Source of the DNA: Chitinophagaceae bacterium
GTDB taxonomy: Bacteria; Bacteroidota; Bacteroidia; Chitinophagales; Chitinophagaceae
Direction of reading: 5' to 3'
NCBI GenBank assembly: GCA_019247775.1
Contig: JAFBAN010000229.1
Coordinates: 1-37,922 of the forward strand
DNA: 37,922 nucleotides
The translations under genes were made by a program, and so were the position numbers. The notes under the pieces were generated by a model. It was not told the DNA's origin. It saw only the letters and a list, made by a program, of their open reading frames with translations, and did not search any database. Positions 4,314-34,975 of the stretch are shown in pieces. Each line of letters starts with the position of its first letter. Position 1 is the stretch's first letter.

Positions 4314-4427
4314 ATGTGCCCTTATATCCCTATGTTCCTATGTGTTAAAATGCACCAGTCAGTACCATCGGAAAGTTCCAGGCTCGCGAGGCTTAACACA
4401 TAGGAACATAGGGGTATAAATTCACAT
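4314..4427. repeat. Inverted repeat element R1 (word cctatgtt), 35-base arms
   Basis: Left arm 4314-4348 and right arm 4393-4427 are reverse complements at about 31 of 35 positions; the core ttaacacataggaacatagg is exact. The 44-base loop is unrelated to the loop of R2. Inside each arm cctatg recurs with an 8-base step. It lies between the SRPBCC stop codon and the ankyrin ATG at 4440. Confidence 0.85.
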
Positions 4428-4439
4428 AGGGTTTCAACC

Positions 4440-5420
4440 ATGATCCAACCACCCGAACTCAAACAAACCCTGCCCGCTAAGCTTACCAACGGCGCTATGT
4501 CCACTACCACAGCGGTCTGGGAGATCTTGCTGGCCAGTTTCAACGGTGATCTGGAGTCCGTTCAGAAACTGGCTGCCGATTGTCCCGAACTCCTCTACGC
4601 CCAATACAACTATGCGCCACCCATTCATTTTGCTGTTCGTGAAGGACATGTACAACTGGTGAAATACCTGCTGGACCACGGCGCTCATGATCCAGCCTAT
4701 CGCTTCTACCCATTCCAGGAAAGCCTTCAAACTGTGGCCAATGACCGCGGCTATACTGAAATAGAAAACCTGCTCGATGAATATGTAGCGGATACTTCCA
4801 GACACAGATCCAAAGGCGATAACGGCGAGATACTATACAACCGCAGTCCGGAACAGATTGAATTTGAGAAAGCGGTTTCGAACAACGATCTGTCCAAAAC
4901 AAAGCAACTGCTGGAGCATCATCCCGATTTCGCGCTCGACGAAAGCTATTTCTGGAGCGAAGGGATTTTACTCTTTGCCGCCAAATCGAATAACAGGCCG
5001 ATGATCGATCTGCTGATGAGCTTTGGCGCAAAAGTTCCACGCCTGCTGAAATGGGCGCAGTTCTATTATTTCGAGAGACTGGACGGCGCCACCTACATGA
5101 TGAAAAAAGGCATGGATCCAAATACGATGAGCTGGCAGCATGTAACGCTGCTTCATGATATGGCCCAAAAAGGCTTTATCGATAAGGCTGACCTGTTGCT
5201 AACCCATGGCGCAGCCCTCGACCCGGTTGATGAAGCTTATCAGTCAACCCCGCTGGGCCTTGCATCCAGGTGGGGACAGACCGAAATGGTCAGCTACCTC
5301 CTTTCCAAAGGCGCCGACCCAAGTAAAGCAGGCGCAGCATGGTCAACACCGATTGCATGGGCAAGGAAAAAAGGGCATGACAAAATTGAAAAGATCCTCA
5401 TCGATGCGGGCGCCGCGTAA
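4440..5420 (+). CDS. Ankyrin repeat protein
   Basis: 326 aa made largely of ankyrin repeats. Clear units include APPIHFAVREGHVQLVKYLL near residues 59-78 and STPLGLASRWGQTEMVSYLL with the following SKGADP near residues 276-302. A last unit (STPIAWARKKGHDKIEKILI) ends the protein. The middle (YFWSEGILLFAAKSNNRPMI) is a more degenerate unit. No signal peptide is seen. Ankyrin repeats mediate protein-protein contacts; no partner can be named. A second Met at residue 20 (ATG at 4497) is an alternative start that would remove a Pro-rich leader. The stop codon is one base before the DinB ATG, so the two genes are likely translationally coupled. Confidence 0.85.
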   Translation: MIQPPELKQTLPAKLTNGAMSTTTAVWEILLASFNGDLESVQKLAADCPELLYAQYNYAPPIHFAVREGHVQLVKYLLDHGAHDPAYRFYPFQESLQTVANDRGYTEIENLLDEYVADTSRHRSKGDNGEILYNRSPEQIEFEKAVSNNDLSKTKQLLEHHPDFALDESYFWSEGILLFAAKSNNRPMIDLLMSFGAKVPRLLKWAQFYYFERLDGATYMMKKGMDPNTMSWQHVTLLHDMAQKGFIDKADLLLTHGAALDPVDEAYQSTPLGLASRWGQTEMVSYLLSKGADPSKAGAAWSTPIAWARKKGHDKIEKILIDAGAA

Positions 5421-5421
5421 C

Positions 5422-5988
5422 ATGCAGGACACAGTCTACATACAGAAAATCCTTGCCAGCGGCCAATCAGCCAAACAGAAAGCTGCGACAGCATTTTCGG
5501 GATTATCTGAAACGCAGATCAACTGGAAACCTTCGGCAGACTCGTGGAGCATCGCACAATGCCTGGAACACCTGATGATCGCAGACGCCTGCTATTTCCC
5601 GGTCTTTGAAAAGATCATGGCAGGCCATTACAAAATCTCGTTTTGGGAAAAATACAGTCCGTTCACTGCGCTCTGCGGCCGGCTGCTGAAAAACCAGCTC
5701 CGCGAAGAAGTGAAGCGGAAAATGATCGCTCCCAAAAAGATCAGGCCTGCGTTTCAGCATAAGCTGGATGGTTTTATCAGTGAATACCTTGATAACCTGT
5801 CAAGGTTCCTGGCCTATATTGAGAACTGCGCGCATGCGGATCCCGACAAAATAATATTGACCTCACCCACGATCCCGATCGTTACCTACAGTCTGCGGGA
5901 TGCATTGCAGTTCCTGGTTCAGCACGAGCACCGTCATATCAACCAGGCGATCAGGGTAAAGCAGCATGCTTCATTTCCGGCGCTCTGA
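5422..5988 (+). CDS. DinB family protein
   Basis: 188 aa from the ATG at 5422, which follows the ankyrin stop codon after one base. A longer reading from 5206 would overlap the ankyrin gene and adds only low-complexity residues, so it is rejected. The protein has the DinB/YfiT four-helix pattern: WSIAQCLEHLMIAD carries the first His ligand, and HEHRHINQAIRV near the C-terminus carries the other two. Members bind a divalent metal, and some are thiol-dependent transferases; the substrate is unknown. An inverted repeat (R2) starts one base after the stop codon. Confidence 0.85.
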   Translation: MQDTVYIQKILASGQSAKQKAATAFSGLSETQINWKPSADSWSIAQCLEHLMIADACYFPVFEKIMAGHYKISFWEKYSPFTALCGRLLKNQLREEVKRKMIAPKKIRPAFQHKLDGFISEYLDNLSRFLAYIENCAHADPDKIILTSPTIPIVTYSLRDALQFLVQHEHRHINQAIRVKQHASFPAL

Positions 5989-5989
5989 C

Positions 5990-6105
5990 TATGTGACCTC
6001 ATATCCCTATGTTCCTATGTGTTAAATATTCGCGTTTGAAGCCTCCCGCTGTTACGGGCTTTCGGACGTTTAACACATAGGAACATAGGGACACAAGTTC
6101 ACATA
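5990..6105. repeat. Inverted repeat element R2, second copy of the R1 family
   Basis: Arms 5990-6026 and 6069-6105 are 37 bases each and pair at about 33 positions. They carry the same core as R1 (ttaacacataggaacatagg), but the 42-base loop is different. R2 begins one base after the DinB stop codon. Confidence 0.85.
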
Positions 6106-6157
6106 AGGTCTGAGGGAGATTCTGTAATTTCACGAGCTTCAATACCACGCAGGTTCA

Positions 6158-6562
6158 ATGCCAAATCTTAGCTACATAGCTCCCCTGTTCATCGTTAAGG
6201 ACCTGCGGGTTTCCATTGCATTTTATAAAGACAGGCTGGGATTTGAGGTCCGCTATATCGGCCCGGAGGGAGAAGACCCATTCTTTGCGATCGTTGGCCG
6301 CGATAAGATCTCCATCATGCTCAAACAGATCGCTTCGGATATCCTGCCGGTTCCCAACCATACCCGGCATGACTGGGCGCGCCTGGATGCCTATATTTCC
6401 GCAGAAGACCCCGATGCGCTGTACGAAGAATACCGGGCTGCAGGTATCGAATTCCATCAACCGCTGCGCAATGATGAGGACAGGCTGCGTGGGTTCGAAC
6501 TGGCGGATGCCGATGGCTATATCCTTTTTTTCGGCCGGCCGCAGCATGAAGACGGAACATAA
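6158..6562 (+). CDS. VOC superfamily protein (glyoxalase/bleomycin-resistance fold)
   Basis: 134 aa. Two beta-alpha-beta-beta-beta modules are visible. The first starts IAPLFIVKDLRVSIAFYKDRLGF, the second ARLDAYISAEDPDALYEEYR, and the end (FELADADGYILFFGRP) holds the Asp-x-Asp-Gly turn before the last strand. The family covers metal-dependent lyases, dioxygenases and drug-binding proteins, and this sequence does not reveal which. It is the first of three VOC proteins between 6158 and 7647, suggesting a small accessory or detoxification cluster. Confidence 0.85.
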   Translation: MPNLSYIAPLFIVKDLRVSIAFYKDRLGFEVRYIGPEGEDPFFAIVGRDKISIMLKQIASDILPVPNHTRHDWARLDAYISAEDPDALYEEYRAAGIEFHQPLRNDEDRLRGFELADADGYILFFGRPQHEDGT

Positions 6563-6621
6563 ATCCTTAACCACGCGGTAGCAAATCATTTTCTATTTTT
6601 ATAGACCTAAAACCCCAGCTC

Positions 6622-7038
6622 ATGTTAGTAGCCTATGTAAATTTCAACGGCAACACGGAAGAAGTTTTTAATTTCTACGCCTCCGGGCTCGGCGGCCAGA
6701 TCGTTAATGTGCAGCGCTTCAGCGATTCGCCACAGGGTGGTCAGCTGCCGGAAGCTGAAAGGAACAAGATCATGCATATTGCCCTCGAAGCGCCCGGCGG
6801 TATCAGGCTGATGGGTACTGACCACCAGGAATCGATGAGCGGACCATTCAATCCGGGCAACAATTTCTCTTTATCGCTTCATCCCGACAGCGAAGAACTC
6901 TCAGATAAATTCTTCAATAATCTTTCGGCCGGTGGAACCGTTATCATGCCGATGAGCAAAGCGCCATGGGGCGATTATTTCGGGATGTTCAAAGACAAGT
7001 TCGGCATGACCTGGATGATCAACTGTCAGAAAAAATAA
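6622..7038 (+). CDS. PhnB-like VOC family protein
   Basis: 138 aa. YVNFNGNTEEVFNFYASGLGG at the start and GDYFGMFKDKFGMTWMINC at the end are the usual PhnB / 3-demethylubiquinone methyltransferase-like signature. The central segment (MHIALEAPGGIRLMGTD) also fits. The molecular role of PhnB-like proteins is generally unknown. It is followed 10 bases later by the KOW gene, so they are probably one unit. Confidence 0.85.
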   Translation: MLVAYVNFNGNTEEVFNFYASGLGGQIVNVQRFSDSPQGGQLPEAERNKIMHIALEAPGGIRLMGTDHQESMSGPFNPGNNFSLSLHPDSEELSDKFFNNLSAGGTVIMPMSKAPWGDYFGMFKDKFGMTWMINCQKK

Positions 7039-7048
7039 AGCGCCCCTT

Positions 7049-7246
7049 ATGAAAATCAAAACACCAGCCGAACTGAAAGACGGCGATCAATGCACAGTGG
7101 TGGGCGGTACCCATGCCGGTAAATCCGGAACAGTGCGGGATATCAATACCAGCAAGACCGGCCATATCACCATCACCGTTGAACAAAAGAACGGCATACG
7201 GTTCAAGACCCTGGGCAAAAATGTGTCGGTACCGACCGGCCGCTAA
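7049..7246 (+). CDS. Small KOW-motif protein
   Basis: 65 aa. The sequence KDGDQCTVVGGTHAGKSGTV is a clear KOW motif (Gly at the turn, hydrophobic alternation), the RNA- or protein-binding element of ribosomal proteins uL24 and NusG. A second beta segment follows (HITITVEQKNGIRFKTLG). It is far shorter than uL24 or NusG and is a stand-alone KOW domain; the function is unknown. It lies between PhnB-like and VOC genes with short spacers. Confidence 0.75.
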   Translation: MKIKTPAELKDGDQCTVVGGTHAGKSGTVRDINTSKTGHITITVEQKNGIRFKTLGKNVSVPTGR

Positions 7247-7269
7247 AATCATTGACCAACCCACTCCTT

Positions 7270-7647
7270 ATGAATACGATCGGTTTTTTTGAGATCCAGT
7301 CCTCCGATCCGGCACGCGATCTGGCTTTTTACCAGGCTGTTTTCGGCTGGAAATTTACCAGGCAGGAAGCTGTGCCTATAGAATATTACCTGATCGAGAC
7401 CGACAATATTTGGGGCGGCCTGCTGAAACGTCCTGCGCCGCTCCCACCCATCAGAACCGGCACTAATGCTTTTGTCTGCTCGGTAGAGGTTAAGGATTAC
7501 GATAAAACAAGCGGGCTGATCCTGCAACAGGGCGGAAAAATAGCCATGCCAAAATTCGCTGTGCCCGGAAAATGCTGGCAAGGCTATTTTATCGATCCTG
7601 ATAACAATACTTTCGGCATCTTCCAGGTGGATGAGGAGGCCAAATAA
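7270..7647 (+). CDS. VOC family protein
   Basis: 125 aa from the ATG at 7270. An upstream TTG at 7252 would add six residues and is less likely. It starts with IGFFEIQSSDPARDLAFYQ, contains the AVFGWKF turn typical of this subgroup, and ends CWQGYFIDPDNNTFGIFQVD. These features match glyoxalase-like VOC proteins whose substrates are mostly unknown. It is the third VOC protein in the cluster. Confidence 0.85.
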   Translation: MNTIGFFEIQSSDPARDLAFYQAVFGWKFTRQEAVPIEYYLIETDNIWGGLLKRPAPLPPIRTGTNAFVCSVEVKDYDKTSGLILQQGGKIAMPKFAVPGKCWQGYFIDPDNNTFGIFQVDEEAK

Positions 7648-7681
7648 TACAATAGCCGCTTAGTTTGATCACTTTCGGCTG

Positions 7682-7843
7682 ATGTTTCACGCCTCACGGT
7701 TCGTCACGCCGCAGCACCTGTTCGGGAATGAACCGGACTTCTATATTTTATTGCGGCCCGATAATCATATTCCTTATCTTGGAAAGGACCTGATGCAATG
7801 CAGAAGCCTTCTGCAGTCGCTGAGGCCAGCCAATAAAGATTGA
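7682..7843 (+). CDS. Possible small ORF, 53 aa, unrecognised
   Basis: An open frame runs from ATG 7682 to TGA 7841-7843, ending four bases before the next ATG. The product has a plausible globular stretch (NEPDFYILLRPDNHIPYLGK) but I recognise no family. Its first codons overlap a degenerate copy of the tcacgcc word (7684-7710). It could be a real small protein, a remnant of a larger gene, or chance. Confidence 0.3.
   Translation: MFHASRFVTPQHLFGNEPDFYILLRPDNHIPYLGKDLMQCRSLLQSLRPANKD
7684..7710. repeat. Degenerate tcacgcc-type word, possible decayed repeat
   Basis: The segment contains tcacgcctcacgg and then tcacgcc. These match the W2 word (gtgaggc on the other strand) of the large elements at 18142 and 25325. 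No second arm is visible. Confidence 0.35.
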
Positions 7844-7847
7844 GCTC

Positions 7848-8135
7848 ATGGGAAAGATCTATTGCTCCTGCGGCGAAATGCTCTCCGACAACAGCGAGGC
7901 GAACAAAGCCAGGATCATTGCGGACAAGGATTTTGAAAAAATGATGGAGCAGATCATAGCAAAACCGGCCGATGCCTACTGGCTGGCAGCGCCTTATTTC
8001 GAATCGTTTTACCAATGCTATCATTGCCATAATCTCATCTTCGTGCTCCCCAATGCCACTCTTGAATTCAAACCGGTTGATCCGGAAAGCAGTGCGGATC
8101 TTGTTGCAGCCTATCTGCGGAAAACCAGCGATTGA
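7848..8135 (+). CDS. Hypothetical protein with paired Cys motifs
   Basis: 95 aa. Two cysteine groups, IYCSCGEM near residue 5 and QCYHCHNL near residue 57, could bind one zinc ion in a split ribbon. The middle is helical (ANKARIIADKDFEKMMEQII). No family is recognised. No signal peptide or membrane segment is seen, so it is probably cytosolic. It starts four bases after the possible 53-aa ORF. Confidence 0.6.
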   Translation: MGKIYCSCGEMLSDNSEANKARIIADKDFEKMMEQIIAKPADAYWLAAPYFESFYQCYHCHNLIFVLPNATLEFKPVDPESSADLVAAYLRKTSD

Positions 8136-8196
8136 TACATCTTCACGCCCGTACTAACTCCTGATTTACGGGCTACAGCCCTTGTTAAGTTTGTTC

Positions 8197-10299
8197 ATGC
8201 GCAGTTATGGACCAAATTTCAGGCGATCGCATCCGTTTATCCGTCTGCTGGTGGCATTGGTTGTCGGGATACTGGTGCAGCGATACATCGATCTTCCGCT
8301 TGCACTCATCGCTATCATTTTGCTGATCGCTATAGCCGGCTGGCTTTTCATTCGCTTCGCAACGATACAGCACAAATTCCGCTGGCGATGGATAGGCGGG
8401 ATCAGCATTTTTCTCTGCCTGTTTGCCGCAGGAGCAGTACTGGTGTATACGAAAGACATCCGCCATCGCAGCGCATGGATAGGATACCAGCTAAACGCCA
8501 ACCTCTTACTGGTAACAGTGAACGAACCTCTGACTGCAAAAGCAAGATCGTTTAAAACAACGGCCCTTGTAAAAGCAGTGTACGTAAACAGGAAATGGGA
8601 ACCGGTAACAGGGACGCTGCTTGTTTATTTCGCCAGGCCGTCGGTATCAGGCCGCCTGCATTCAGACACCTTTCCCTTAGTTCAATATGGGTCGAGGCTT
8701 GTGATCCGCAAGCCGCTGCAGCAGATCCTCGGCCCAGGCAATCCGGGCGCTTTTGACTACGGGAAATATTGCGCGGCACAAAATATCTATCACCAGGTGT
8801 ACCTGCAGCCGAAAGATTATTTGCTGCTCCCCGGCCCCGATGCAAATAATTTTACCGCCGGCCTGTTGAACGTACGCGACAGGGTGTTATCAACGCTGAG
8901 ACAGTTCATCCCCGGTGAAAAAGAAGCCGGGGTTGCCGAGGCCTTGCTGATCGGTTACCGGAACGACCTGGACAAGGAGCTGGTGCAGGCATACAGCAAC
9001 ACCGGCGTGGTGCATATCATTGCCATCAGTGGGTTACATCTGGGGATGATCTATGGCCTGCTGGTTGCTCTATTCAAGCCTTTCCGCCGGTTCAGGGGCT
9101 CAAAGCTGGTTAAACCGGTATTCATTCTCGCCGTACTTTGGGGCTTTTCGCTATTAACCGGCGCTGCCGCCTCCATTCTGCGTTCGGCAGTGATGTTCTC
9201 CTTCATCGTTATTGGCGAAAGCCTGGGACGGAAGACCCGTATCTACAATACACTGGCTGCATCCGCATTTTGTCTTTTGGTATATGATCCCGGGATGCTT
9301 TGGGATGTGGGCTTTCAATTATCCTATGCCGCCGTACTCAGCATCATCATTTTTATGAAACCAATCTACCGTCAGATCTATTGCCGTAATAAGATATTGA
9401 ATATGGTGTGGGAGCTCAATTCCATCACACTGGCTGCGCAGATCCTTACCCTTCCATTGCTTCTTTTTTATTTTCACCAGTTCCCCAACCTGTTCCTGTT
9501 CACCAATTTTATCGCCGTGCCGCTCTCCGGATTTATTCTGTACGGTGAACTGATCCTGCTGCTGGTAACGCAGATCCCATTCATCAACAACCTGGCCGGC
9601 ATGTGCTCCGCCTTCCTGATCAGGCAGATGGACGGTGTGATCGAACGGACCGATCGGTTACCGTTTGGCGCTACCGTAAATATTCCCTTTATACTCAGCC
9701 AGGCCATCCTGCTTTACGCCGGTATCAGCCTGCTGGCCTGGTGGATCTTTCAGAAAAACAAACCCGCGTTGCTGGGTGGCTGCTTCATTATTTTGTTGCT
9801 CATCGCTACACACAGCGTCACCACTATTCAACAAAAAAGGCAGCGCCTGCTGCTTGTTTACAATATCCCGAAACAAAGCGCCATGGATATCATCGAAGGA
9901 AAACAATACAATTTTTATGGTGATACCGGCCTGCTCCGGAACAGATCGCTCCAGAACTTTCACCTGCAGCCGGCCCGCATCCTGTATGGGGTTGCCGGCC
10001 GGTGTTCAGCCGCATCTGTCCCTCCATCCCGGCCCTTGCGAACCGGCCACACCACTATCCTATTGGTTGACCCGGCATTTCATCTGCCCCGGACAAGGCT
10101 GCATGCAGACCTCGTCGTTTTCAGTCACAGGCCACGACTTTCAGTTCCGCAGCTGGCAGCAGTGATCGATTGTCCACAATATGTATTCGACAGCAGTAAT
10201 CCATTGTGGAAAATCCGGGAATGGAAAAAACAGGCCGACAGCCTACATTTGCGCCATCACTCCGTGCCAGAACAGGGCGCATTTCAAATGGCACTCTAA
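8197..10299 (+). CDS. comEC: ComEC/Rec2 family DNA uptake channel protein
   Basis: 700 aa from the ATG at 8197; a TTG at 8182 would add five residues. An N-terminal DUF4131 region with several membrane helices (LLVALVVGILVQRYIDLPLA) is followed by the Competence domain. Its core reads AISGLHLGMIYGLL near residue 275, then a series of membrane segments ending near residue 540. The C-terminal part resembles a degenerate metallo-beta-lactamase-like domain without the HxHxDH zinc motif; to my knowledge this is common in Bacteroidota ComEC. It would form the inner-membrane channel for single-stranded DNA during natural transformation. comF lies 15 kb away in this window, also on the plus strand. 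purH follows with a 26-base gap. Confidence 0.9.
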   Translation: MRSYGPNFRRSHPFIRLLVALVVGILVQRYIDLPLALIAIILLIAIAGWLFIRFATIQHKFRWRWIGGISIFLCLFAAGAVLVYTKDIRHRSAWIGYQLNANLLLVTVNEPLTAKARSFKTTALVKAVYVNRKWEPVTGTLLVYFARPSVSGRLHSDTFPLVQYGSRLVIRKPLQQILGPGNPGAFDYGKYCAAQNIYHQVYLQPKDYLLLPGPDANNFTAGLLNVRDRVLSTLRQFIPGEKEAGVAEALLIGYRNDLDKELVQAYSNTGVVHIIAISGLHLGMIYGLLVALFKPFRRFRGSKLVKPVFILAVLWGFSLLTGAAASILRSAVMFSFIVIGESLGRKTRIYNTLAASAFCLLVYDPGMLWDVGFQLSYAAVLSIIIFMKPIYRQIYCRNKILNMVWELNSITLAAQILTLPLLLFYFHQFPNLFLFTNFIAVPLSGFILYGELILLLVTQIPFINNLAGMCSAFLIRQMDGVIERTDRLPFGATVNIPFILSQAILLYAGISLLAWWIFQKNKPALLGGCFIILLLIATHSVTTIQQKRQRLLLVYNIPKQSAMDIIEGKQYNFYGDTGLLRNRSLQNFHLQPARILYGVAGRCSAASVPPSRPLRTGHTTILLVDPAFHLPRTRLHADLVVFSHRPRLSVPQLAAVIDCPQYVFDSSNPLWKIREWKKQADSLHLRHHSVPEQGAFQMAL

Positions 10300-11843: not shown

Positions 11844-11893
11844 TTAGCCGCAGATCCGCAGAGTGCTTAAAAAATCTGCGAATCTGCGGCTAA
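11844..11893. repeat. Inverted repeat R4 (word ccgcagat), between convergent genes
   Basis: Arms 11844-11862 and 11875-11893 pair at 18 of 19 positions around a 12-base A-rich loop. Each arm contains the 8-base word cgcagatc or its complement twice. It may act as a bidirectional terminator for purH and the convergent deacetylase gene. Confidence 0.8.
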
Positions 11894-11908: not shown

Positions 11909-13225
11909 TTACCCGAAATTGGATTGCAGGAATTGCTCATACATCCGCCTCCACTCAACCCATTCAGGCTGCAAGGTCAGGAAATGATTGTGAAACAGGG
12001 TGATCAGTTCTCCTTCCACATTTTTTACCGTATCGTAATAATACTGTATCTCCGCCCCGGCCTGCTCGGCAGAATAGTGCTGCTGAAAGAAAGAGTTCGC
12101 TTCCATGAAACAGAAAGGATGCACCACTAGTTGCGTCACCTGCTCTTTTTCCAGGTCGTACCAGCGAAAAGGCAGGGCATAAGAAGCCCGGAAACCGTTA
12201 ACCGTGCCATAGGCCATTGAATGATCATCCGTAATACCCGCGGCACTCAGCCGGCGGTAAGAATGCGGCAGTGTAAAACGCAGGTAATGGTTCCGGGAAA
12301 CGAATATCCTATGTCCTACAATCGCTTCCAGTTTTTCTTTTTCCTGCAGCAATAAGCCTTCCTCATCCCCGCTCCTCCAGGAAGGATGTAGCCCGGTCAC
12401 ATACACAGCGGCTAGTTTCTTATATAATCTTTGCAAGGCAGCACTGGCGGCAGGCAAATTCTTGTCATACAATCCGCGTTTGATAAGCGTCAGAAAAAAA
12501 TAGGCCGGCTTCAGCCGGTAGCGGGCATGCAGTTCATCCAGCCAGCCGAATGTATCGAAGGGATCTGCATGCCTTCCGGTATAGCTATTACCCCGCTCGA
12601 TCACTTTATCGATCTTACCCTGCAGCAGGTCGCGGAAAAAACCGGCTACATTTTTCCATACCGGCTGCGCAGCATAAGCATAGGCAATATCAATATCATA
12701 GGTAGGAAGGAAACGGAACTTGGAATGCTGCATTTTGAATGTGGGCTGCGGAAATTTTGCGGATAATTCCACATCTAATCGCTGCATCCATAGATTTACC
12801 AGAGGCTGGTTGAGGAATTCATTCCGGTAAGCCAGGCTGTTCTCATGCGCGTACCGCCCATAAGCATCCACTGAATGGGGCAGATATTCTTCATAGCGGG
12901 AGATCAGGTAAAAAGCGGCGGCGAAAAGATCGAAAGGGATATCTCCCGCCGTTCTGAAAAAAACCTTCAAACCATTCCATTCGAAACAATCAGGCGATTG
13001 CGGTTTGATCGCGTTCTCAGTCAGCAATCCATGTGGCTGTATATGCAGGGCGCCGGTTATTGGATCGGGAGAATAATTAATAACAGGTCCGGCATGTGCT
13101 TCGATCTCTGCCTTATCCGAACTGATCCGGACCTTCCCGCCCGAAAGGGTATTTGCGATATAACCCAGCCGCGGCGAAACCTCCGGCGTATAGATCAACA
13201 GCTCATTAGTAATTGCTCTATCCAA
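11909..13225 (-). CDS. Polysaccharide deacetylase family protein (Bacteroidota type)
   Basis: 438 aa. The NodB-like core begins FRFLPTYDIDIAYAYA near residue 170, where TYDID stands at the position of the metal-binding Asp motif. It continues with KPAYFFLTLI and VTGLHPSWRS (second metal site) and ends in LITLFHNHFLT. This matches a Bacteroidota branch of carbohydrate esterase family 4, often linked to envelope polysaccharides. No signal peptide is evident, so the location is uncertain. The start is unclear: no ATG exists near the beginning, an in-frame TAA lies directly upstream, and TTG at 13225 is the best candidate. The first codons come from a repeat arm (R5), so the true start may be a later CTG or TTG near LLIYTPE. 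Confidence 0.75.
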   Translation of the reverse strand: MDRAITNELLIYTPEVSPRLGYIANTLSGGKVRISSDKAEIEAHAGPVINYSPDPITGALHIQPHGLLTENAIKPQSPDCFEWNGLKVFFRTAGDIPFDLFAAAFYLISRYEEYLPHSVDAYGRYAHENSLAYRNEFLNQPLVNLWMQRLDVELSAKFPQPTFKMQHSKFRFLPTYDIDIAYAYAAQPVWKNVAGFFRDLLQGKIDKVIERGNSYTGRHADPFDTFGWLDELHARYRLKPAYFFLTLIKRGLYDKNLPAASAALQRLYKKLAAVYVTGLHPSWRSGDEEGLLLQEKEKLEAIVGHRIFVSRNHYLRFTLPHSYRRLSAAGITDDHSMAYGTVNGFRASYALPFRWYDLEKEQVTQLVVHPFCFMEANSFFQQHYSAEQAGAEIQYYYDTVKNVEGELITLFHNHFLTLQPEWVEWRRMYEQFLQSNFG

Positions 13226-13256
13226 TTATTAATTACTAATTATTAATTATCAATTG
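13204..13256. repeat. AT-rich heptamer repeat R5 (word aattatt)
   Basis: From 13224 the sequence reads aattatt, aattact, aattatt, aattatc, aattg: four and a half units with an exact 7-base step. A shorter inverse arm (cattagtaattg) lies at 13204-13215. The element covers the stop codon of the lutB-like gene (13250-13252) and the first codons of the deacetylase frame. Confidence 0.85.
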
Positions 13257-15304: not shown

Positions 15305-15346
15305 AATCTGCGAATCTGCGGCTTTAAAAAGCTGCAGCAGCAGATT
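15305..15346. repeat. Imperfect inverted repeat R6 (aatctgcg word)
   Basis: Left arm aatctgcgaatctgcggctt and right arm aagctgcagcagcagatt are imperfect complements around a short A-rich loop. The left arm carries the same 8-base word as R4 (tctgcgaa). It lies upstream of the DUF3109 start. The rest of 15267-15452 shows no ORF or clear signal. Confidence 0.6.
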
Positions 15347-16096: not shown

Positions 16097-16145
16097 GTCT
16101 ATAGTCCATGGTCCATGGTCCATGGTCCATGGTCCAAGTCGATAG
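16097..16145. repeat. Heptamer repeat R7 (word gtccatg)
   Basis: Units gtccatg at 16104, 16111, 16118 and 16125, then gtccaag and tcgatag, step exactly 7 bases. The ends (ctatag and tcgatag) make the whole block an imperfect palindrome. The same words recur in the inner arms at 18212-18294. It lies between the gldE stop codon and the gldD start. Confidence 0.9.
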
Positions 16146-16172
16146 TTTTTTTACAGACATGCAGTATTGACC

Positions 16173-16214
16173 GGACTCCAGACTCCTAACTCCAGACTCC
16201 AGACTCCAAACTAT
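16173..16214. repeat. Heptamer repeat R8 (word agactcc) touching the gldE stop codon
   Basis: Five units from 16173 with a 7-base step: ggactcc, agactcc, taactcc, agactcc, agactcc, then aaactat. The last unit overlaps the gldE TAG (16211-16213). On the gldE coding strand the units read ggagtct, ggagtct, ggagtta, ggagtct, ggagtcc, almost the same order as the element inside mutL. Confidence 0.9.
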
Positions 16215-18039: not shown

Positions 18040-18141
18040 ACGATAGATTTTACGTTCCTAGCATTGAATCACTCTTAAAAATACTTTTTTTTAAGCAACA
18101 AAAGAATAGCAGGGTAAATTTTAACGGGCGATCGGCGGTGT

Positions 18142-18350
18142 AAGGCGTGAGACGTGACACGTGAGGCGTGAGGCGTGAGAGGCGGCGCGAGTGGTTGCAG
18201 TCTTGCTGATCGGGTCCATAGTCGATAGTCCATGGTCCATAGTAGCGGCGGATGGATCATGGACTATCGACTATCGACTATTGACCATGGACCCGCACTC
18301 AAGATCCACGTTTAACGACTCCCGCCTCACGTCTCACGCTTCACGACCCC
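18142..18350. repeat. Outer inverted repeat R9a (word gtgaggc) between ssb and mutY
   Basis: Left arm 18142-18185 has cgtgagg- and cgtgaga-type units; right arm about 18320-18349 has the complement (cctcacgtctcacgcttcac). Step is mostly 7 bases. The right arm contains the mutY TGA stop codon (18341-18343). R9a encloses a second, different inverted repeat (R9b). The 301-base gap 18040-18340 holds nothing else except an A/T-rich stretch near 18075-18105. Confidence 0.9.
18212..18294. repeat. Inner inverted repeat R9b (words gtccata, gtcgata)
   Basis: Left arm 18212-18243 starts gggtccatagtcgatagtcc; right arm 18258-18294 ends ctattgaccatggaccc and contains ctatcga twice. The arms pair with small differences and with one more 7-base unit on the right. 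The words are those of R7. Confidence 0.9.
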
Positions 18351-25324: not shown

Positions 25325-25479
25325 GGCGTGAGGCGTGACGTGAGGCGTGAGGCGTGAGGCGTGAGGCGTGAGACGTGAGACGTGAATGGTGAATGGCCAC
25401 GGCTCGTTTCGTGTTTCGCGTTCTTGTTTTTACGGCTTCCTCTCACGTTTGACGTCTCACGCCTCACGATTCACCATTA
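25325..25479. repeat. Large heptamer inverted repeat R11 (word gtgaggc)
   Basis: The left arm 25325-25394 has about nine units of gcgtgag or close variants with a mostly 7-base step. The right arm 25441-25479 has the complements (tctcacg, gcctcacg, attcaccatt). The two ends, atggtgaat and attcaccat, pair exactly. It fills the gap between radA and comF. The word is shared with R9a. Confidence 0.92.
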
Positions 25480-26877: not shown

Positions 26878-26957
26878 TGAGGTTTGGAGTTTGGGGTTTG
26901 GGGTTTGGAGTTGGCGTCGTGTCGTTGACGCGAGAACTATAAACCCCAAACCAAAAT
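26878..26957. repeat. Heptamer repeat R12 (word gtttggg)
   Basis: Units gtttgga, gtttggg, gtttggg, gtttgga start at 26882 with an exact 7-base step. The partner arm (ataaaccccaaaccaaaat) is at 26939-26957. It begins a few bases after the gpx stop codon. Confidence 0.88.
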
Positions 26958-28210: not shown

Positions 28211-28546
28211 GGATCCTGCCCGGGTGGCGGGAGGTGAGGATGGGAGACATGGGTTACCGTGTAGAATTGGTTTACGGACCAGCTATGCACCTGAACTGTT
28301 ACCTGCTTATCAATATACTTGAAGGCACTGATGCTGAACAACATATCTCAAAGCTCAACAGCCGGTCCGCGATAGCGGCGCTGAAGTGAGTGACACAACG
28401 AAGCATCATAGCAGTACTGTTGCCGGTACCATCTCCCGACTAAATCAAAAGTGAAAAGTAAAAAGTCAAAAAGACTGCTGTTTGCGTTTTGACTTTTGGG
28501 TTTTGATTTTTGACTTACATTTTAAAACCTTTGAATTTAAAGAACC
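28211..28546. other. Intergenic region between holB and ricT
   Basis: 336 bases. The 3' third holds repeat R13. A 49-codon open frame (ATG 28240 to TGA 28389) is present but resembles no family and is more likely chance. No RNA gene is recognised. Confidence 0.5.
28443..28520. repeat. Heptamer inverted repeat R13 (words agtcaaa / ttttgac)
   Basis: The left arm 28443-28477 reads aatcaaa, agtgaaa, agtaaaa, agtcaaa, aagactg. The right arm 28486-28520 reads gttttga, cttttgg, gttttga, tttttga, cttacat. Both step exactly 7 bases. It ends 26 bases before the ricT ATG. Confidence 0.92.
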
Positions 28547-29980: not shown

Positions 29981-30001
29981 CTAATTTCAAAACGCGCTTC
30001 G

Positions 30002-30079: not shown

Positions 30080-30179
30080 ACAGGGGTGCAACACTCCGAA
30101 GGGTTTCGCTAAGAGTGGATAAGAGCAAAGGAGCCAAGGAGGATAAATAAATATGCGTAGCTTTCCTGGCCTGCACCCG

Positions 30180-30920
30180 CTATTCGTAATAAAACTCCTG
30201 ATAATACTCATTGCCCTGATCGATATTACTGATACGGATCAGTCTGCCGGCGGCATCATATTTATACGTGAAACCGGGCGTTATCTGGTTATTGCGGTTG
30301 AGTAATTCGGGACTGTCATAAATGTAAAAAGCCAATAGTCCCAGGGAACGGTAAGGGTTATCAGCCTTGTCGAATGTGTACCCGCTAACAGGTATATTGC
30401 CATCGGCATTATAGGTAAAATCCCATTGATTCATCTTAACGTTGGCTGAGGGGTTCTGCTGCTGCCCATAAAAGCCGACGGCCGATATATGGCCGTTGGC
30501 ATCGTAGGTGTAGGACCGGATACGGAAGTAGGGGCTTGTATATGGATAGCTTTTGGTGTAGCGTTCTGTTACCCTGCCGTTTACATAAGCAAGGGAATCG
30601 ACCCCTATCTTCAGTAAATGATGGTCTGCGTCAAATGCCAGCGCGGGCTTAATAAAAATCTGCATCCTGAGCGGGGTTGGTCCGGTATACCAGTTGCGCC
30701 AACCCAGGTCCTGTTGTTCCAGTTGAATCAATGCACCGTTCTGATCATAGGTAAACTGCTGAATGATCAGGGGTTTTGATGAATAATTGCCAATGGAATC
30801 TGCACCATTGGTAAGTACTTTAACCAGCCTGGCAGGTTTATCAATAACTTCTGTGTTCTTGGTACAACTGTACAGGAACAAAAACAAACAGAACAATATC
30901 GTCAACCGACGTAAGTCCAT
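30180..30920 (-). CDS. Hypothetical lipoprotein with YD-like repeats
   Basis: 246 aa. A lipoprotein signal (ILFCLFLFLYSC, Cys 19) is followed by beta-rich repeats such as QFTYDQNGALIQLEQ, SYTYDANGHISAVGF and TYKYDAAGRLIRISN. These resemble the YD repeats of RHS/DUF4595-type secreted proteins. Such lipoproteins are common in Bacteroidota genomes; the function is unknown. It is convergent with ricT. Confidence 0.75.
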   Translation of the reverse strand: MDLRRLTILFCLFLFLYSCTKNTEVIDKPARLVKVLTNGADSIGNYSSKPLIIQQFTYDQNGALIQLEQQDLGWRNWYTGPTPLRMQIFIKPALAFDADHHLLKIGVDSLAYVNGRVTERYTKSYPYTSPYFRIRSYTYDANGHISAVGFYGQQQNPSANVKMNQWDFTYNADGNIPVSGYTFDKADNPYRSLGLLAFYIYDSPELLNRNNQITPGFTYKYDAAGRLIRISNIDQGNEYYQEFYYE

Positions 30921-31082
30921 ATCAATAAGGGCGAGGATAGTTAAATTTACGCAACCAGCACTACAAATGCAATAAAAAACATGCTCGGAGAGTGGCCATT
31001 TGAAAGAATTTACTGGCCTTCACGGATTTACGAGCGTACGCCATCGTTTTATTTTTTTGGCGCTTCTCTATTGCGGAATGCG

Positions 31083-31164
31083 GTTTCGCTAAGCAGGGGA
31101 AAGAGAGAAAGAGGGTAACAGGAGGTTTCTCTTGGCTCTTTCTCTCTTTGCCTCTTAGCGAAAC
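31083..31164. repeat. Inverted repeat R15 (gtttcgctaag, aaagagagaaagag)
   Basis: The left arm from 31083 (gtttcgctaag...aaagagagaaagag) and the right arm ending at 31164 are complements; the left arm has two extra bases. The right arm ends one base before the pepF stop codon (31166). The remaining 30921-31082 region shows no gene. Confidence 0.85.
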
Positions 31165-31165
31165 T

Positions 31166-32899
31166 TTACAGCTTTTCCATTTCGCCAGCAGTAAATTCCA
31201 TCAACGTTTTAATGTGTTCCGGCGAGAGATCGAATTTGAGGCCGGCGGCTTTATATAGTTCGGGTAATGTTTTAGTTCCGCCGAGGCTCAGCGCTTTGAT
31301 ATAATTTTCTAAAGCCTTTGAAGGATTTTGTTTGTACTGCATCCAGAGCCCGATAGCGCCCAGTTGTGCGATACCATATTCGATGTAGTAGAATGGAACT
31401 TCAAATAAATGCAACTGTCGCTGCCAGCCGATCTTGCGGAACTCATCAAGGCCGGAATAATCGATGGCGCCGGAGGAGAACTCATTGAGGATCTCCATCC
31501 ATTTGTCCGTTCTTGCTTCAACGGTGTGCTGCGGGTTTTCGTACACCCAGTGCTGGAATTTATCGATGATGGCTATCCATGGAAAGATGGTGATGGTCCG
31601 CTCGAGCTGGTGTTCCCTGGCACGTGTGAGGTCTTCTTTGCTGCTAAAAAAAGCTTCCCAGTGATCCATGGTGAACAACTCCATGGCCATGCTCGCCACT
31701 TCAGCGATCTCCATCGGGTATTCCTTGAATGCACTGAGCTCCAGCTCATGCGCCAGGAATGAGTGTACGGCATGACCACCCTCGTGCACCATGGTAGTTA
31801 CGTCGCTCATCTGGCCGGCAGCATTCATAAAGATGAAAGGCGCACCGCTCTCCGATAAGGGACAGTTATAGCCGCCCGGCGCCTTGCCTTTGCGGCTTTC
31901 GAGATCGAAATGGTTCAGCTCTTTCATTTTGCGCAGGCAGTCGGCAAAAAAAGGATTGAGTTGCTGGAACACCTGCACTGATTTCTCATACAGCTCCTGG
32001 CCGTTATTGAAAGGCTTGAGCGGCTCAACACCCTCGGGCTCCGCTTCGGTATCCCAGGGGCGCAATTTGTCAAGACCCAGTTTCTTTCTTTTTTTCTCGT
32101 AGATCTTATCGATCAGCGGCAGCACATGCAGCTTAACTGCTTCATGAAACTGGAAGCAATCTTCCTTGGTATAATCGAAGCGGCCAAGTTCCACGAATTT
32201 GTAATCGCGGTAATTGGCGAACCCGGCATTTTTTGCCACCTGGTCGCGTTTATGCACCAACTGGGTATACAGGTCGTTCATAGCCTGCTTATCCTGCAGC
32301 CTTCTTTCCTGGATCTTGCGGTATACTTCTTCGCGCAGCTTGCGATCATGGCTCTCAAGGAATTTTCCTGCCTGCTGCAAAGTGTATTCCTGGCCATTTA
32401 CTTCAATGGTCATTTTACCGGCGATGGCGCCGTATTGTTGCTGCATCACATTGAGCTCTGCCTGGAGCGGAATGTTTTCCTAGCGGAACAGGTCGATGCT
32501 TTTGCGGACATTGCGGAGATAGGTGTAATATTTTTCGTCGTCCAGCTCTTTGGATAAAGGACTGTCGATGAGTTTACGGTTGAGCAGGTCGCCATAAGGC
32601 TGCAACCGGGGCTGGATCTCCATGCAGAAATAAGTGAACGCATCCTCCAGGGCTTTATCTGTGGTATCGCAGGTCATTCTGATCTGGCGCCAGCAGGCAT
32701 CTTCGCTTACTACTGCTTCCAGTTCACTGATGTCTTTCATCCACTGCTCCAGGTCGGCACGGGTATTCAATGGCCTGTCGGCCAGGTCTTTAAAAAAGGG
32801 CTCGAGACCAGCCCAGTCTGTCAGTACAAAATTGTTCGGCACAAAATGCCTTTCCAGCTTTCTGATATCCGCGTTAGGGGTCATTTTTTCTGATTTCAT
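31166..32899 (-). pseudogene. pepF: M3 family oligoendopeptidase (PepF-like) with one in-frame TAG
   Basis: Read through from ATG 32899 to TAA 31166 the frame is 577 codons, the usual length for this M3B family. It is broken once, by TAG at 32480-32482, between KSIDLFR and ENIPLQAELN; the frame continues unchanged after it. The missing codon is probably Glu or Gln, since one base change gives GAG or CAG. The zinc site MVHEGGHAVHSF and the downstream Glu in EIAEVASMAME are intact in the second part. Possible readings are a recent nonsense mutation, read-through, or a sequence error. It encodes a cytosolic metallopeptidase for short peptides. It is divergent from mutL. Confidence 0.88.
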
Positions 32900-32995
32900 G
32901 TTCTTTTACTATGCAAATTCCGGACCTCAAAATTACTATAAAGCGTTCTACAACGGGTGCTTTTGGAAAGTTCTTACACTTTCCGAAAGCTGGTC

Positions 32996-33003
32996 TATTT
33001 TTA
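32996..33003 (+). promoter_or_regulatory. Possible -7 box of mutL
   Basis: TATTTTTA matches TAnnTTTG at seven of eight positions. It would place the transcript start near 33010, which supports the GTG start at 33022 over the ATG at 32911. No clear TTTG -33 box is found at 19 bases. Confidence 0.35.
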
Positions 33004-33021
33004 CAGACCCAAAAAGAGATT

Positions 33022-34878
33022 GTGGCGGATATCATACAATTATTACCGGATAATATTGCCAACCAGATAGCGGCGGGAGAAGTGATCCAGCGGCCGGCCA
33101 GCGCCGTAAAAGAGCTGCTCGAAAATGCAGCCGATGCGGGGGCTACGGAGATCCGGCTGATCATCGCCGATGCCGGTAAGGCACTGGTGCAGGTGGTAGA
33201 CAATGGCAAGGGAATGAGTGAAACGGATGCCCGTATGGCTTTTGAGCGGCATGCCACGAGCAAGATCCGTCAGATAGACGATCTGTTCCGGATCAAGACC
33301 ATGGGTTTCAGGGGCGAGGCACTGGCGTCCATCGCTGCCGTAGCCCAGGTTGAATTGCGGACCCGCCGCCCGGAGGATGAGCTGGGCACTTATATCGAGA
33401 TCGGCAACAGCCAGGTACAGAAACAGGAATCCTGTTCCTGCCCGGTAGGCACTAATATAAGCATGAAGAACCTGTTCTTCAGCGTGCCCGCCCGGCGCAA
33501 TTTCTTAAAAAGCAATGCAGCTGAAATGAGGCATATCGTGGATGAGTTCATCCGTGTGGCGATGGCTTTCCCCGGCATCTTTTTCTCCCTTACAGCCAAT
33601 GGCCAGGAACTGTTTCACCTGGAAGCCGGCAGCCTTAAACAGCGCATCATCCATATTCTGGGCGCCCCCTATAATGCAAAACTGGTAAGTGTAAAAGAGG
33701 ATACCGACTACATGAATATCCATGGCTTTGTGGGTAAGCCGGAGACCGCGCGCAAGACCCGGGGCGACCAGTACTTTTTTGTGAACAACCGTTTTATCCG
33801 CAGCGCTTATCTCAACCATGCGGTGAACAGCGCTTTTGAGGATATGATCGCGAAAGACAGTTTCCCCAGTTATGTGTTGTACATCGACCTGGATCCTTCA
33901 CAGGTAGATATCAATGTGCATCCCACCAAGCAGGAGATCAAGTTCGAGGATGAAAAGATCATCTATGCTTTTGTGCAGGCTGCGGTTAAACATGCGCTGG
34001 CGCAGTTCAGCATCGCTCCTTCACTGGATTTTACCCTGAATGCGGAGATCCAGGGCCTGGAAGCCATCAGCAAGCCGTTTACAACGGATAAAAAAGAAGC
34101 CGCCGCCTCTTCAGACCTGTTCAAAACCTTCACACAAAAAAACCAGGCGCATTTCATTGAAGCAAACAAGACCAGTGAACTGAAGCATTGGAAAGAAGGA
34201 ATGGGGAGTGGAAGTCTGGAGTCTGGAGTTAGAAGTCTGGAGTCTGAGCGAAATCCCGCTGCTTTATTCCAGACTCCAGACTCCAGACTTCAGACTACCA
34301 TCCGCCTTCTCCCTGAAAAGCCGCTGCTCCAGATCCACAATACCTATATTCTCGCATCTACCCATTCCGGTTTTATCCTGGTGCACCAGCAGTTCGCGCA
34401 TGAGAGGATCTTGTATGATAAGTACAGCATAGCTGCCCATCACAAACAGATGGCTACGCAGAAAAGCATGTTCCCGGTCACGCTGGAACTGCCGCAGGCC
34501 GACGCCGTGCTGCTCGCAGACCTGCTGCCAGATCTGCATACGATCGGTTATCAGGTAGATCCTTTCGGGAACAACAGTTTTGTGATCCAGGGCATTCCCG
34601 CAGATGTGCTGCCCGGTAATGAAAAACATGCGATCGAATTGCTGATCGAGCAGTTCAAACATTTCAGCAGCGATATCAAATTCAGCAAACGGGAAAAGCT
34701 GGTGCGCTGCATGGCCAGGCAGCAGGCGATCAAAGCCGGACAGTTACTCAATCAGAAAGAAATGATGACGCTGCTCGAAGAACTGTTCGCCTGCAACACT
34801 CCCAATACCACGCCCACCGGCAATCCAACTTACATGGAGTTTAAGGAAGATTATCTGGACAGGATGTTCGGAAGATGA
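33022..34878 (+). CDS. mutL: DNA mismatch repair protein MutL, with a repeat inserted in the linker
   Basis: 618 aa from the GTG at 33022 (MADIIQLLPDNIANQIAAGE), the usual MutL opening; the ATG at 32911 would add 37 unconserved residues. GHKL ATPase motifs are intact: ELLENAADAGA, DNGKGM, ATSKI and GFRGEALASI. The C-terminal dimerisation domain starts near residue 432 (LLPEKPLLQIHNTY). Between them, residues about 397-425 are encoded by a heptamer inverted repeat (R16) and read GSLESGVRSLESERNPAALF and then QTPDSRLQ. The usual endonuclease motif DQHAxxER is HQQFAHER here, and the CPHGRP-like motif near the end is TPTGNP, so nicking activity is doubtful. MutL couples MutS to strand removal in mismatch repair. 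Confidence 0.94.
   Translation: MADIIQLLPDNIANQIAAGEVIQRPASAVKELLENAADAGATEIRLIIADAGKALVQVVDNGKGMSETDARMAFERHATSKIRQIDDLFRIKTMGFRGEALASIAAVAQVELRTRRPEDELGTYIEIGNSQVQKQESCSCPVGTNISMKNLFFSVPARRNFLKSNAAEMRHIVDEFIRVAMAFPGIFFSLTANGQELFHLEAGSLKQRIIHILGAPYNAKLVSVKEDTDYMNIHGFVGKPETARKTRGDQYFFVNNRFIRSAYLNHAVNSAFEDMIAKDSFPSYVLYIDLDPSQVDINVHPTKQEIKFEDEKIIYAFVQAAVKHALAQFSIAPSLDFTLNAEIQGLEAISKPFTTDKKEAAASSDLFKTFTQKNQAHFIEANKTSELKHWKEGMGSGSLESGVRSLESERNPAALFQTPDSRLQTTIRLLPEKPLLQIHNTYILASTHSGFILVHQQFAHERILYDKYSIAAHHKQMATQKSMFPVTLELPQADAVLLADLLPDLHTIGYQVDPFGNNSFVIQGIPADVLPGNEKHAIELLIEQFKHFSSDIKFSKREKLVRCMARQQAIKAGQLLNQKEMMTLLEELFACNTPNTTPTGNPTYMEFKEDYLDRMFGR
34208..34295. repeat. Heptamer inverted repeat R16 inside mutL (word ggagtct)
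   Basis: The left arm has units gaagtct, ggagtct, ggagtta, gaagtct, ggagtct from 34211. The right arm has tccagac, tccagac, tccagac, ttcagac from 34268. All step exactly 7 bases. The insert keeps the mutL frame open. The word is the same as R8 next to gldE. Confidence 0.93.
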
Positions 34879-34975
34879 GAACAGATGAACAAGGAACAGA
34901 TGAGCAAGGAACCGGGGAAGGGAAAACATTCAATGTTCCTCCGTTCCCGGTTCCTTGTTCCTTGTTCATCTGTTC
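34879..34975. repeat. Inverted repeat R17 (word gaacaag) between convergent genes
   Basis: The left arm starts gaacagatgaacaaggaaca directly after the mutL stop codon. The right arm 34941-34975 is its complement but lacks an 8-base unit (gatgagca). The right arm overlaps the stop codon of the carboxypeptidase gene (34974-34976). The pairing is otherwise exact over 30 bases. Confidence 0.93.

What the first reader, a model, noticed from the sequence alone, without database searches (positions are those of the whole stretch)
4314..34975. A dispersed class of heptamer/octamer inverted repeats with different words but one architecture
At least fifteen sites (R1, R2, R4-R17) carry short words repeated with a 7-8 base step, most of them mirrored as a complementary arm after a loop. 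The words differ between sites: gtgaggc, gtccatg, ggagtct, gtttggg, agtcaaa, aattatt, gaacaag, cctatgtt, ccgcagat, and purine-rich words. The sites share a step mostly of 7, matching arms, and a position at gene 3' ends. Several words are used twice in 38 kb. This is not a normal terminator set or a REP/BIME family, where one sequence is conserved. Heptanucleotide tandem repeats are known in cyanobacteria (STRR), but I know of no described Bacteroidota system that keeps both arms complementary while the word changes. A process combining slippage with arm-to-arm correction (quasipalindrome conversion) would fit.
Basis: partly seen in the sequence, partly recalled or inferred. Interest (0 to 1): 0.88.

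Follow-up and report, generated by a model that had tools for sequence, protein, structure and literature searches.

The report
Seven-base tandem hairpins between bacterial genes
Between the genes of this bacterium (genus Sediminibacterium or close kin) lie many short DNA hairpins whose two arms are built from the same seven-base word repeated in tandem; the word differs from place to place and both arms can change word together between close relatives, which makes them a natural test bed for how DNA copying makes and renews inverted repeats.

Summary
In the window, 14 tandem segments with step 7 were found against 0.00 per shuffle; the other steps from 3 to 13 gave one in all, inside a step-7 array. 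In 758,760 bases of this genome (19%) there are 121 step-7 segments and few of other steps. 73 of 121 have a reverse-complement arm within 160 bases, against 44 of 726 for other arrays' flanks. The class recurs at the same gene gaps in many genus members and, at one gap, in other genera, with gap-specific words. At two loci both arms changed word together between genomes 92% identical. Arms show no G·U excess (49 versus 51 A·C), so RNA structure is probably not what keeps them. The 5' arm is mostly the G-rich, C-poor one (44 versus 6). Best reading: a DNA-level growth process, 7-base slippage plus foldback template switching, with ectopic spread of words; fine arm-to-arm correction is only weakly supported. 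Xanthomonas GGGAATC repeats, which include inverted pairs, are the closest described case found, so this is a many-word variant of a known kind.

The parts
4314..4427 (.). Hairpin, step-8 word CCTATGTT/G, arms 35 nt, 44-nt loop
   Evidence: I2; a 601-base query from here has 18 matches in the genome, itself included
5990..6105 (.). Second CCTATGTT hairpin, arms 37 nt, 89% complementary
   Evidence: I1; 76% identical to the first
11844..11893 (.). Step-8 hairpin, word CCGCAGAT, arms 19 nt, 95% complementary, in a convergent gap
   Evidence: I25
13224..13255 (.). Step-7 array AATTATT without a strong partner arm, bridging two genes
15305..15320 (.). Two copies of step-8 AATCTGCG
16097..16136 (.). 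Step-7 array GGTCCAT in the gldE-gldD gap, no strong partner arm; the orthologous gap carries related words in other genomes
16171..16212 (.). Step-7 array GACTCCA, flush with the gldE stop codon, no partner arm
18137..18345 (.). Nested element between ssb and mutY: outer arms GTGAGGC (18137-18185 / 18306-18345), inner arms GGTCCAT (18211-18243 / 18252-18295)
   Evidence: I3, I8, I12
25325..25478 (.). Hairpin in the radA-comF gap, word GTGAGGC (arms 25325-25396 / 25441-25478); three relatives compared have GTGAAAR-type words here
26882..26952 (.). Hairpin: step-7 array GTTTGGA 26882-26912, 11 nt after a stop codon, with a short partner arm 26935-26952
28441..28517 (.). Hairpin, word AGTCAAA
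   Evidence: (I11, I14)
34209..34300 (.). Hairpin, word AGTCTGG, in frame inside mutL, in its variable middle stretch; no counterpart by eye in the 24 relatives readable there
   Evidence: (I9, I22)
34879..34975 (.). Hairpin filling the convergent gap after mutL, words GAACAGAT/GAACAAG (15-nt double unit), 20-nt perfect outer arms
   Evidence: (I15, I21)

Best explanation
These are by-products, or mildly selfish products, of DNA copying rather than RNA signals. A short array of a 7-base word arises or is copied into an intergenic gap, often flush with a stop codon. Slippage in 7-base steps lengthens, shortens and slowly drifts it. Foldback (intrastrand) template switching during replication makes, and now and then renews, a complementary arm from the 5' arm. 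Words already resident in the genome spread between loci and occasionally replace a hairpin wholesale, so both arms change word together. Shown: the 7-base step, arm coupling at word level, both-arm replacement at two loci, a 7-base indel, multi-copy words, no wobble signature, polarity. Inferred: template switching as the agent, its direction, and the route of spread. Why the step is 7 is not explained.
For: Step 7 almost alone: 121 segments against 0, 0, 9, 12, 8, 0, 1, 2, 3 for steps 4, 5, 6, 8-13 in 758,760 bases. Partner arms in 73 of 121 against 44 of 726 controls and 6 of 121 in direct orientation. Mismatches between arms in transcript sense are G·U 49, A·C 51, transversions 137 over 37 hairpins: no RNA selection signal. 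5' arm G>C in 44, G<C in 6 of 52 own hairpins, 35 and 5 of 43 in relatives; T>A 35 against 14 own, only 24 against 16 in relatives (sign tests). Monttinen and Loytynoja 2022 derive a G-C and U-A excess, reading 5' to 3', from intrastrand template switching (passages). Both arms differ in G072 while G068 and outgroup G101 share the other word: GTCCATN against AAAGTGA, and GTCCATN against GGCTAAT/GTTCATA; at a third locus G068 and G101 have a GTGAATN hairpin and G072 a GTCCATN array without the 5' arm. One 7-base unit is missing in G072 at G068cat 12010. A switched AAAGTGA hairpin has 62 matches in G072, 53 in G068, 9 in G101; in the listed part those of 90% or more are single arms of about 21-37 nt, while five longer ones cross the loop at only 68-76%. 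Loops of 8 GTTTGGN hairpins in G084 are no more alike than shuffled (0.33 without one neighbouring pair, shuffled 0.32), as expected if arms, not whole elements, are made and copied. Within-genome arm match exceeds cross-genome at S19-L22 and L14-L24 (0 of 2000 each) and S3-L16 (4 of 2000); unit order in own genome 0 of 400 shuffles.
Against: Arm-to-arm copying at the level of single units is weak: relatives 50 of 400 shuffles reach the observed value; strict same-word control p=0.46 in relatives (a looser control gave 29 of 29 own and 15 of 17 relatives, but lets the control words differ more); within one word class at orthologous gaps self is not above cross (GTTTGGN 4636, AACGCTN 3967, TTAGCTN 3060, AGCTNNN 1754, all GT types 430 of 5000), so the excess is mainly a matter of word class; three more gaps were not significant (239, 221, 271 of 2000). 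Hairpins share words and some are orthologous, so polarity counts are not independent. No event was caught in the act, and the step of 7 has no cause in this model. The density varies strongly among genomes without a known factor.
Confidence: 0.42

Rival explanations
1. REPIN-like miniature mobile elements: each word is one family of ssDNA hairpins moved by a Y1 (IS200/RAYT-type) transposase of the host; whole hairpins insert in intergenic gaps and replace each other.
For: Multi-copy word families with unrelated flanks; gaps of 16-17 nt in 7 of 20 relatives against 93-105 nt filled at L29-S17; wholesale word switch; full-length Y1_Tnp in 8 of 10 genomes that I sorted as array-rich against 2 of 13 array-poor (Fisher p=0.0034).
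Against: Array-rich, single-contig G101 has no Y1_Tnp hit, and G033 only a weak one; no array in the 2.4 kb around the full-length Y1 gene of the window's genome, and arrays at 4 of 13 Y1 loci examined, two of them A-rich or T-rich runs; loops not conserved among copies; words drift and no constant tag was seen; sorting rich/poor rests on small samples and ignores phylogeny.
Confidence: 0.25
2. Functional RNA hairpins at gene ends (mRNA stabilisers, processing sites, attenuators), kept complementary by selection.
For: They often sit flush with stop codons (51 of 89 within 16 nt), lie inside a ribosomal protein operon in many relatives at the same gaps, and arms stay complementary.
Against: No G·U over A·C excess (49 versus 51); about the same frequency per gap in divergent gaps; gaps without an element in relatives; in 18000-37922 none of 26 terminator-like sites (23.4 expected) lies on an element, though that scan sees only loops of 3-8; no Rfam match.
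Confidence: 0.13
3. 3'-end extension at breaks: an enzyme adds the same 7-base word to the 3' ends on both sides of a break and the ends are then joined, giving word-junction-complement.
For: Accounts for the reverse-complement-symmetric polarity (G-rich strand running towards the middle on both strands), the same word on both sides, variable junctions, one-armed cases and nested words (18137-18345).
Against: No RVT_1 reverse transcriptase in the window's genome and in only 1 of 10 array-rich genomes; word similarity at orthologous gaps is not expected from random breaks.
Confidence: 0.08
4. Chance, low complexity or assembly artefact.
For: Draft genome in 248 contigs; many relatives are drafts too.
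Against: Shuffle and other-step controls; the same class in a 3.1 Mb single-contig genome, G101, and at the same gene gaps in many genomes.
Confidence: 0.01

Closest known systems
GGGAATC heptamer repeats of Xanthomonas and GGGGAYT repeats of Nostoc (Rehm et al. 2015, PMC4692102; abstract, introduction, one results section and passages seen)
   Same: Tandem 7-mers, mostly intergenic; in 70 and 75 cases two arrays in convergent orientation form an inverted repeat, which I read as G-rich arm first, the same polarity as here; 83% in the same gene context between two Xanthomonas species.
   Different: One G-rich word there, dozens here; many words here lack GGG tracts, so G-quadruplex formation cannot be the common theme; word switches on both arms were not described in what I read.
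TAACTGA direct repeats (MacGregor 2015, PMC4679880; abstract, outline and the Bacteroidetes section seen)
   Same: Heptamer arrays in intergenic regions, including five Bacteroidetes, some with other heptamers in the same gap; close relatives with shorter gaps lacking them.
   Different: Mostly one word, direct (one indirect repeat reported in the main genome), proposed translational role upstream of starts.
REPINs with RAYT transposases (Bertels and Rainey 2011, PMC3116915; abstract and outline seen)
   Same: Dispersed extragenic inverted doublets able to form hairpins, populations within a genome, Y1 transposase present.
   Different: REPs are defined by conserved palindromic sequences; here arms are tandem 7-mers of changing word, and no array was found beside the full-length Y1 gene of the window's genome.
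Template-switch (quasipalindrome) evolution of hairpins (Monttinen and Loytynoja 2022, PMC8794818; abstract, outline and passages seen)
   Same: DNA-level copying between arms, predicted G-C and U-A bias in the 5' to 3' direction.
   Different: Described there for RNA genes under structural selection; no tandem step in what I read.
Cyanobacterial STRR heptamers (three heptamers in Calothrix are mentioned in the introduction of Rehm et al.; the name STRR is from the finding and recall)
   Same: Several heptamer words in one genome.
   Different: Not compared here by any search.

Membership tests
Heptameric simple sequence repeats (Rehm et al. type) | Tandem unit of 7 bases, over-represented against other unit sizes | tested here: met
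Heptameric simple sequence repeats (Rehm et al. type) | Enriched between genes | tested here: met
   104 of 121 intergenic, 11 coding, 6 at contig edges, by my own rough gene calls covering 86% of bases
Heptameric simple sequence repeats (Rehm et al. type) | Convergent inverted pairs with the G-rich arm first | tested here: met
   (44 against 6, 2 ties, own; 35 against 5, 3 ties, relatives); published counterpart
Heptameric simple sequence repeats (Rehm et al. type) | A single G-tract word able to form quadruplexes | tested here: not met
   43 canonical words in 121 segments; GTCTGGA, AATAATT, GTGAATG and others have no GGG
REPIN/RAYT | Inverted doublet able to form a hairpin, many copies per genome | tested here: met
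REPIN/RAYT | Conserved palindromic REP per family (tag recalled and from listings) | tested here: not met
   words vary between and within arrays and loops are not conserved
REPIN/RAYT | Elements beside the cognate transposase gene | tested here: not met
   no array in 2.4 kb around the full-length Y1 gene of G000 (a second, partial hit at C185 was not fetched); arrays at 4 of 13 Y1 loci, two of them A-rich or T-rich runs
MITE | Terminal inverted repeats with target-site duplication and a conserved interior | tested here: inconclusive
   gaps with and without an element compared by eye; interiors not conserved in one family; no duplication analysis made
Intrinsic terminators | G+C-rich stem followed by a T run | tested here: not met
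   none of 26 terminator-like sites in 18000-37922 lies on an element; the scan allows loops of 3-8 only and 1-17999 was not scanned
Known RNA families | Match to an Rfam model | tested here: not met
   0 matches at gathering thresholds in the window
Template-switch hairpins | Arms of one locus match each other better than arms of other loci with the same word | tested here: inconclusive
   own 13 of 17 tested (40 pairs), p=0.017; relatives 10 above, 7 below of 18 tested (28 pairs), p=0.46; null within word classes

The most novel reading that the evidence does not exclude
A dedicated DNA synthesis activity other than an RVT_1 reverse transcriptase adds 7-base words to 3' ends at breaks or stalled forks, telomere-fashion, on both sides of the gap before joining; the hairpins are the scars. 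This would explain the 7-base step, the shared word, the symmetric G-rich polarity, the variable middle and the one-armed and nested forms with one act.
Probability: 0.07. Interest if true: 0.92.

Novelty: new variant of a known kind. Interest (0 to 1): 0.62.

Why it matters
Inverted repeats are usually studied one locus at a time. Here one genome offers an estimated several hundred array loci (87 in 19% of the genome, so roughly 460 by simple scaling; not all two-armed) with dozens of words, at orthologous places in many sequenced relatives, so the birth, drift and replacement of hairpin arms can be followed directly, and RNA selection can be told from DNA copying by the wobble test. It also extends the unexplained bacterial preference for 7-base tandem units, known from single-word families, to a many-word system and raises the question of what sets the step at 7.

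Tried and rejected
Intrinsic terminators and known RNA families: not supported. RNA-level selection: no wobble excess. Reverse transcriptase as the maker: RVT_1 is absent from 9 of the 10 array-rich genomes, G000 among them, and present in 6 of 13 array-poor ones. Loss of SbcD as the permissive factor: 18 of 23 genomes had weak matches and none exceeded the family cut-off, so there was no contrast. Y1 transposase: suggestive count, but no linkage and a counterexample. A mutL comparison: of 30 loci (the window's own and 29 relatives), five relatives (L030, L042, L043, L044, L057) gave no usable linker row in my script; the other 24 show no counterpart by eye, one (L041) has a short 7-base repetition there; L030 had no step-7 segment at score 10. 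GTTTGGN hairpins by exact pattern in 244 genomes of the family: G000 and 2 others, both of other genera, which speaks of that word only. Literature searches: 20 of 36 listed; 15 of 3,567; 30 of 2,121; 12 of 110; 8 of 12; none; 8 of 10; 6 of 1,130; no listed title or abstract start described a many-word heptamer hairpin class in Bacteroidota; subscription papers are mostly not held. PMC4060949 was searched for heptamer terms without a hit. A recalled 2007 survey of prokaryotic simple repeats was looked up and is not held. The word-family list used for the gldE Fisher test was written after seeing the sequences. One codirectional gap longer than 700 nt was dropped.
Full report
What is there. A self-match scan of the window found 14 segments that repeat with a step of 7 bases, none in shuffles (mean 0.00 in 50), and of the other steps from 3 to 13 only one segment, step 12, inside a step-7 array. 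The inverted-repeat search independently finds most of them as two-armed elements; 11 of the 14 have a partner arm of score 14 or more. The words differ: GTGAGGC, GGTCCAT, AGTCTGG, AGTCAAA, GAACAAG, AATTATT, GTTTGGA; two sites of CCTATGTT and two of CCGCAGAT have step 8. One element is nested: GTGAGGC arms outside, GGTCCAT arms inside (18137-18345). Gene names in this report (gldD, gldE, ssb, mutY, radA, comF, mutL, ribosomal proteins) are my reading of the translations (and the L016 frames), not family searches.

Genome scale. They hold 121 step-7 segments in 87 loci; steps 4, 5, 6, 8, 9, 10, 11, 12, 13 gave 0, 0, 9, 12, 8, 0, 1, 2, 3. For the first 20 stretches, 41 segments were seen and 0.0 expected from five order-2 random sequences; for the other 40 the other steps are the control. 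There are 43 canonical words; 27 of them form one chain of single-base steps, against a largest chain of 4-18 in 20 letter-shuffled sets, so the words look like drifted relatives of one another.

Arms. 73 of 121 arrays have a reverse-complement match of score 14 or more within 160 bases; the same arrays against the flanks of six other arrays each reach it in 44 of 726 comparisons, and direct-orientation copies in 6 of 121. In 50 codirectional gaps with an array (one longer gap dropped), 37 hairpins scored 10 or more; the other 13 were left out of the mismatch count. Mismatches read in transcript sense are 49 G·U, 51 A·C and 137 transversions: if RNA pairing were selected, G·U should exceed A·C. 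The 5' arm has more G than C in 44 hairpins, fewer in 6 (2 ties of 52), and 35 against 5 (3 ties of 43) in relatives; T exceeds A in 35 against 14 own, but only 24 against 16 in relatives; composition in the own genome is A 0.25, C 0.11, G 0.33, T 0.32. Because a hairpin reads the same on both strands, this polarity cannot come from strand or gene direction. The hairpins share words, so the counts are not independent.

Place. 104 of 121 segments are intergenic, 11 coding, 6 at contig edges, by a rough dicodon gene caller of my own that misses some genes, such as the long frame at 8182-10299. Per gap they are about equally frequent in codirectional (72/385), convergent (17/89) and divergent (15/87) gaps. 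Where a gap begins with a stop codon, 51 of 89 segments start within 16 nt of it; only 15 of 87 lie within 16 nt of a start codon. One element is inside mutL in frame.

Relatives. Titles of records with the same gene cluster are Sediminibacterium species and unnamed Chitinophagaceae or Bacteroidota, with Segetibacter, Hydrotalea and Flavihumibacter further out. Abundance varies: 0-1 segments per 20-60 kb in several genomes, 9 per 20 kb in two, and uneven within a genome. Among 80 orthologous gldE loci (787,488 bases) step 7 gave 37 segments and steps 4-6 and 8-13 together 23. In the gldE-gldD gap 14 of 21 arrays belong to one word group, elsewhere 1 of 16 (Fisher p=2e-4; grouping post hoc); a Segetibacter record is among the 14.

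Ribosomal operon. In the S10 operon of G000 and many of 20 relatives the same gaps carry such sequences: GTTTGGN at S19-L22, AGCTNNN at L29-S17, AACGCTN or TTAGCTN at L14-L24, and an 8-base word TTTGAAAA at S3-L16 and L16-L29. At S19-L22 two genomes, G073 and G050, have GTCTGTR or GTCTCTG words on both arms in place of GTTTGGN. L29-S17 gaps of 16-17 nt exist in 7 relatives beside filled ones of 93-105. Words in the same gap of different genomes are closer (1.92 mismatches) than in different gaps (2.90; 0 of 500 label shuffles, phylogeny not controlled and some of the 20 are near relatives). Within-genome arm matches exceed cross-genome ones at S19-L22 and L14-L24 (0 of 2000), S3-L16 (4 of 2000), but not at L16-L29, L29-S17 and S17-L14 (239, 221, 271 of 2000). 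Held within one word class the difference vanishes.

Change between close relatives. G068 and G072 share 91.6% identity over 66.7 kb; G101 is the outgroup at about 83%. At two loci G072 has another word on both arms while G068 and G101 agree, and at a third G068 and G101 have a GTGAATN hairpin where G072 has GTCCATN sequence without the 5' arm; at a further locus one 7-base unit is missing in G072 (its output was cut, so these are the loci that I saw, not a complete count). A switched AAAGTGA hairpin has 62 matches in G072, 53 in G068 and 9 in G101; the listed ones of 90% or more are single arms, and five longer ones cross the loop at 68-76%. In G084 and G136 GTTTGGN hairpins stand at unrelated sites with mostly different loops.

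Mechanism. Word-level coupling of arms, unit changes, missing RNA signature, unconserved loops and the polarity fit DNA-level growth with foldback template switching; the polarity is the one that Monttinen and Loytynoja derive for intrastrand switches that copy from the 5' base (passages). Unit-level copying between arms is the weak point: own genome 0 of 400 unit shuffles, relatives 50 of 400; with the word held constant own 13 of 17 loci (p=0.017), relatives 10 above and 7 below of 18 (p=0.46); a looser control was more favourable (29 of 29 and 15 of 17) but is less fair. So arms seem to be made alike, then drift. Mobility in the REPIN manner remains open: the full-length Y1 transposase is present in 8 of 10 array-rich and 2 of 13 array-poor genomes, by my own sorting from small samples, but the array-rich G101 has none and no array flanks the full-length gene in G000. 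RVT_1 reverse transcriptases are not needed.

Known or new. Heptamer arrays are known; Xanthomonas has one G-rich word, often as convergent inverted pairs, and TAACTGA arrays occur in five Bacteroidetes. What I did not find in print, whose listings are capped, is a many-word hairpin class with both-arm word replacement at orthologous gaps. I therefore call it a new variant of a known kind.

Noticed in passing
window 34209-34300: A heptamer hairpin lies in frame inside the frame read as the mismatch-repair gene mutL; 24 relatives whose linker could be read show no counterpart by eye.
   Followed up: partly
L188-L207, S3-L16 and L16-L29 gaps: A step-8 word TTTGAAAA/TTTTCAAA forms the same hairpin architecture in many relatives, while the window's genome and G049 have a step-7 AATTAAT/AATTATT word at S3-L16.
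   Followed up: partly
G000:C148:16248-16595 (L291) and relatives: A Y1 (IS200/RAYT-like) transposase, mostly one full-length copy per genome, is shared by 8 of 10 array-rich genomes; its partner DNA element is unknown.
   Followed up: partly
L218:1-137: A contig begins with a long CAAACGC array, so some contig breaks may fall in the longest arrays and the counts may be lower bounds.
   Followed up: no
window 29990-30110 and 31083-31164: Purine-rich inverted repeats without a 7-base step sit beside two genes; they may be a separate or decayed class.
   Followed up: no
L194 and L206, L14-L24 gap: G068 and G072 carry a 119-nt gap with CCCCTAAAGGGG-type sequence where the close relative G074 (L193) has a TTAGCTN hairpin.
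   Followed up: no
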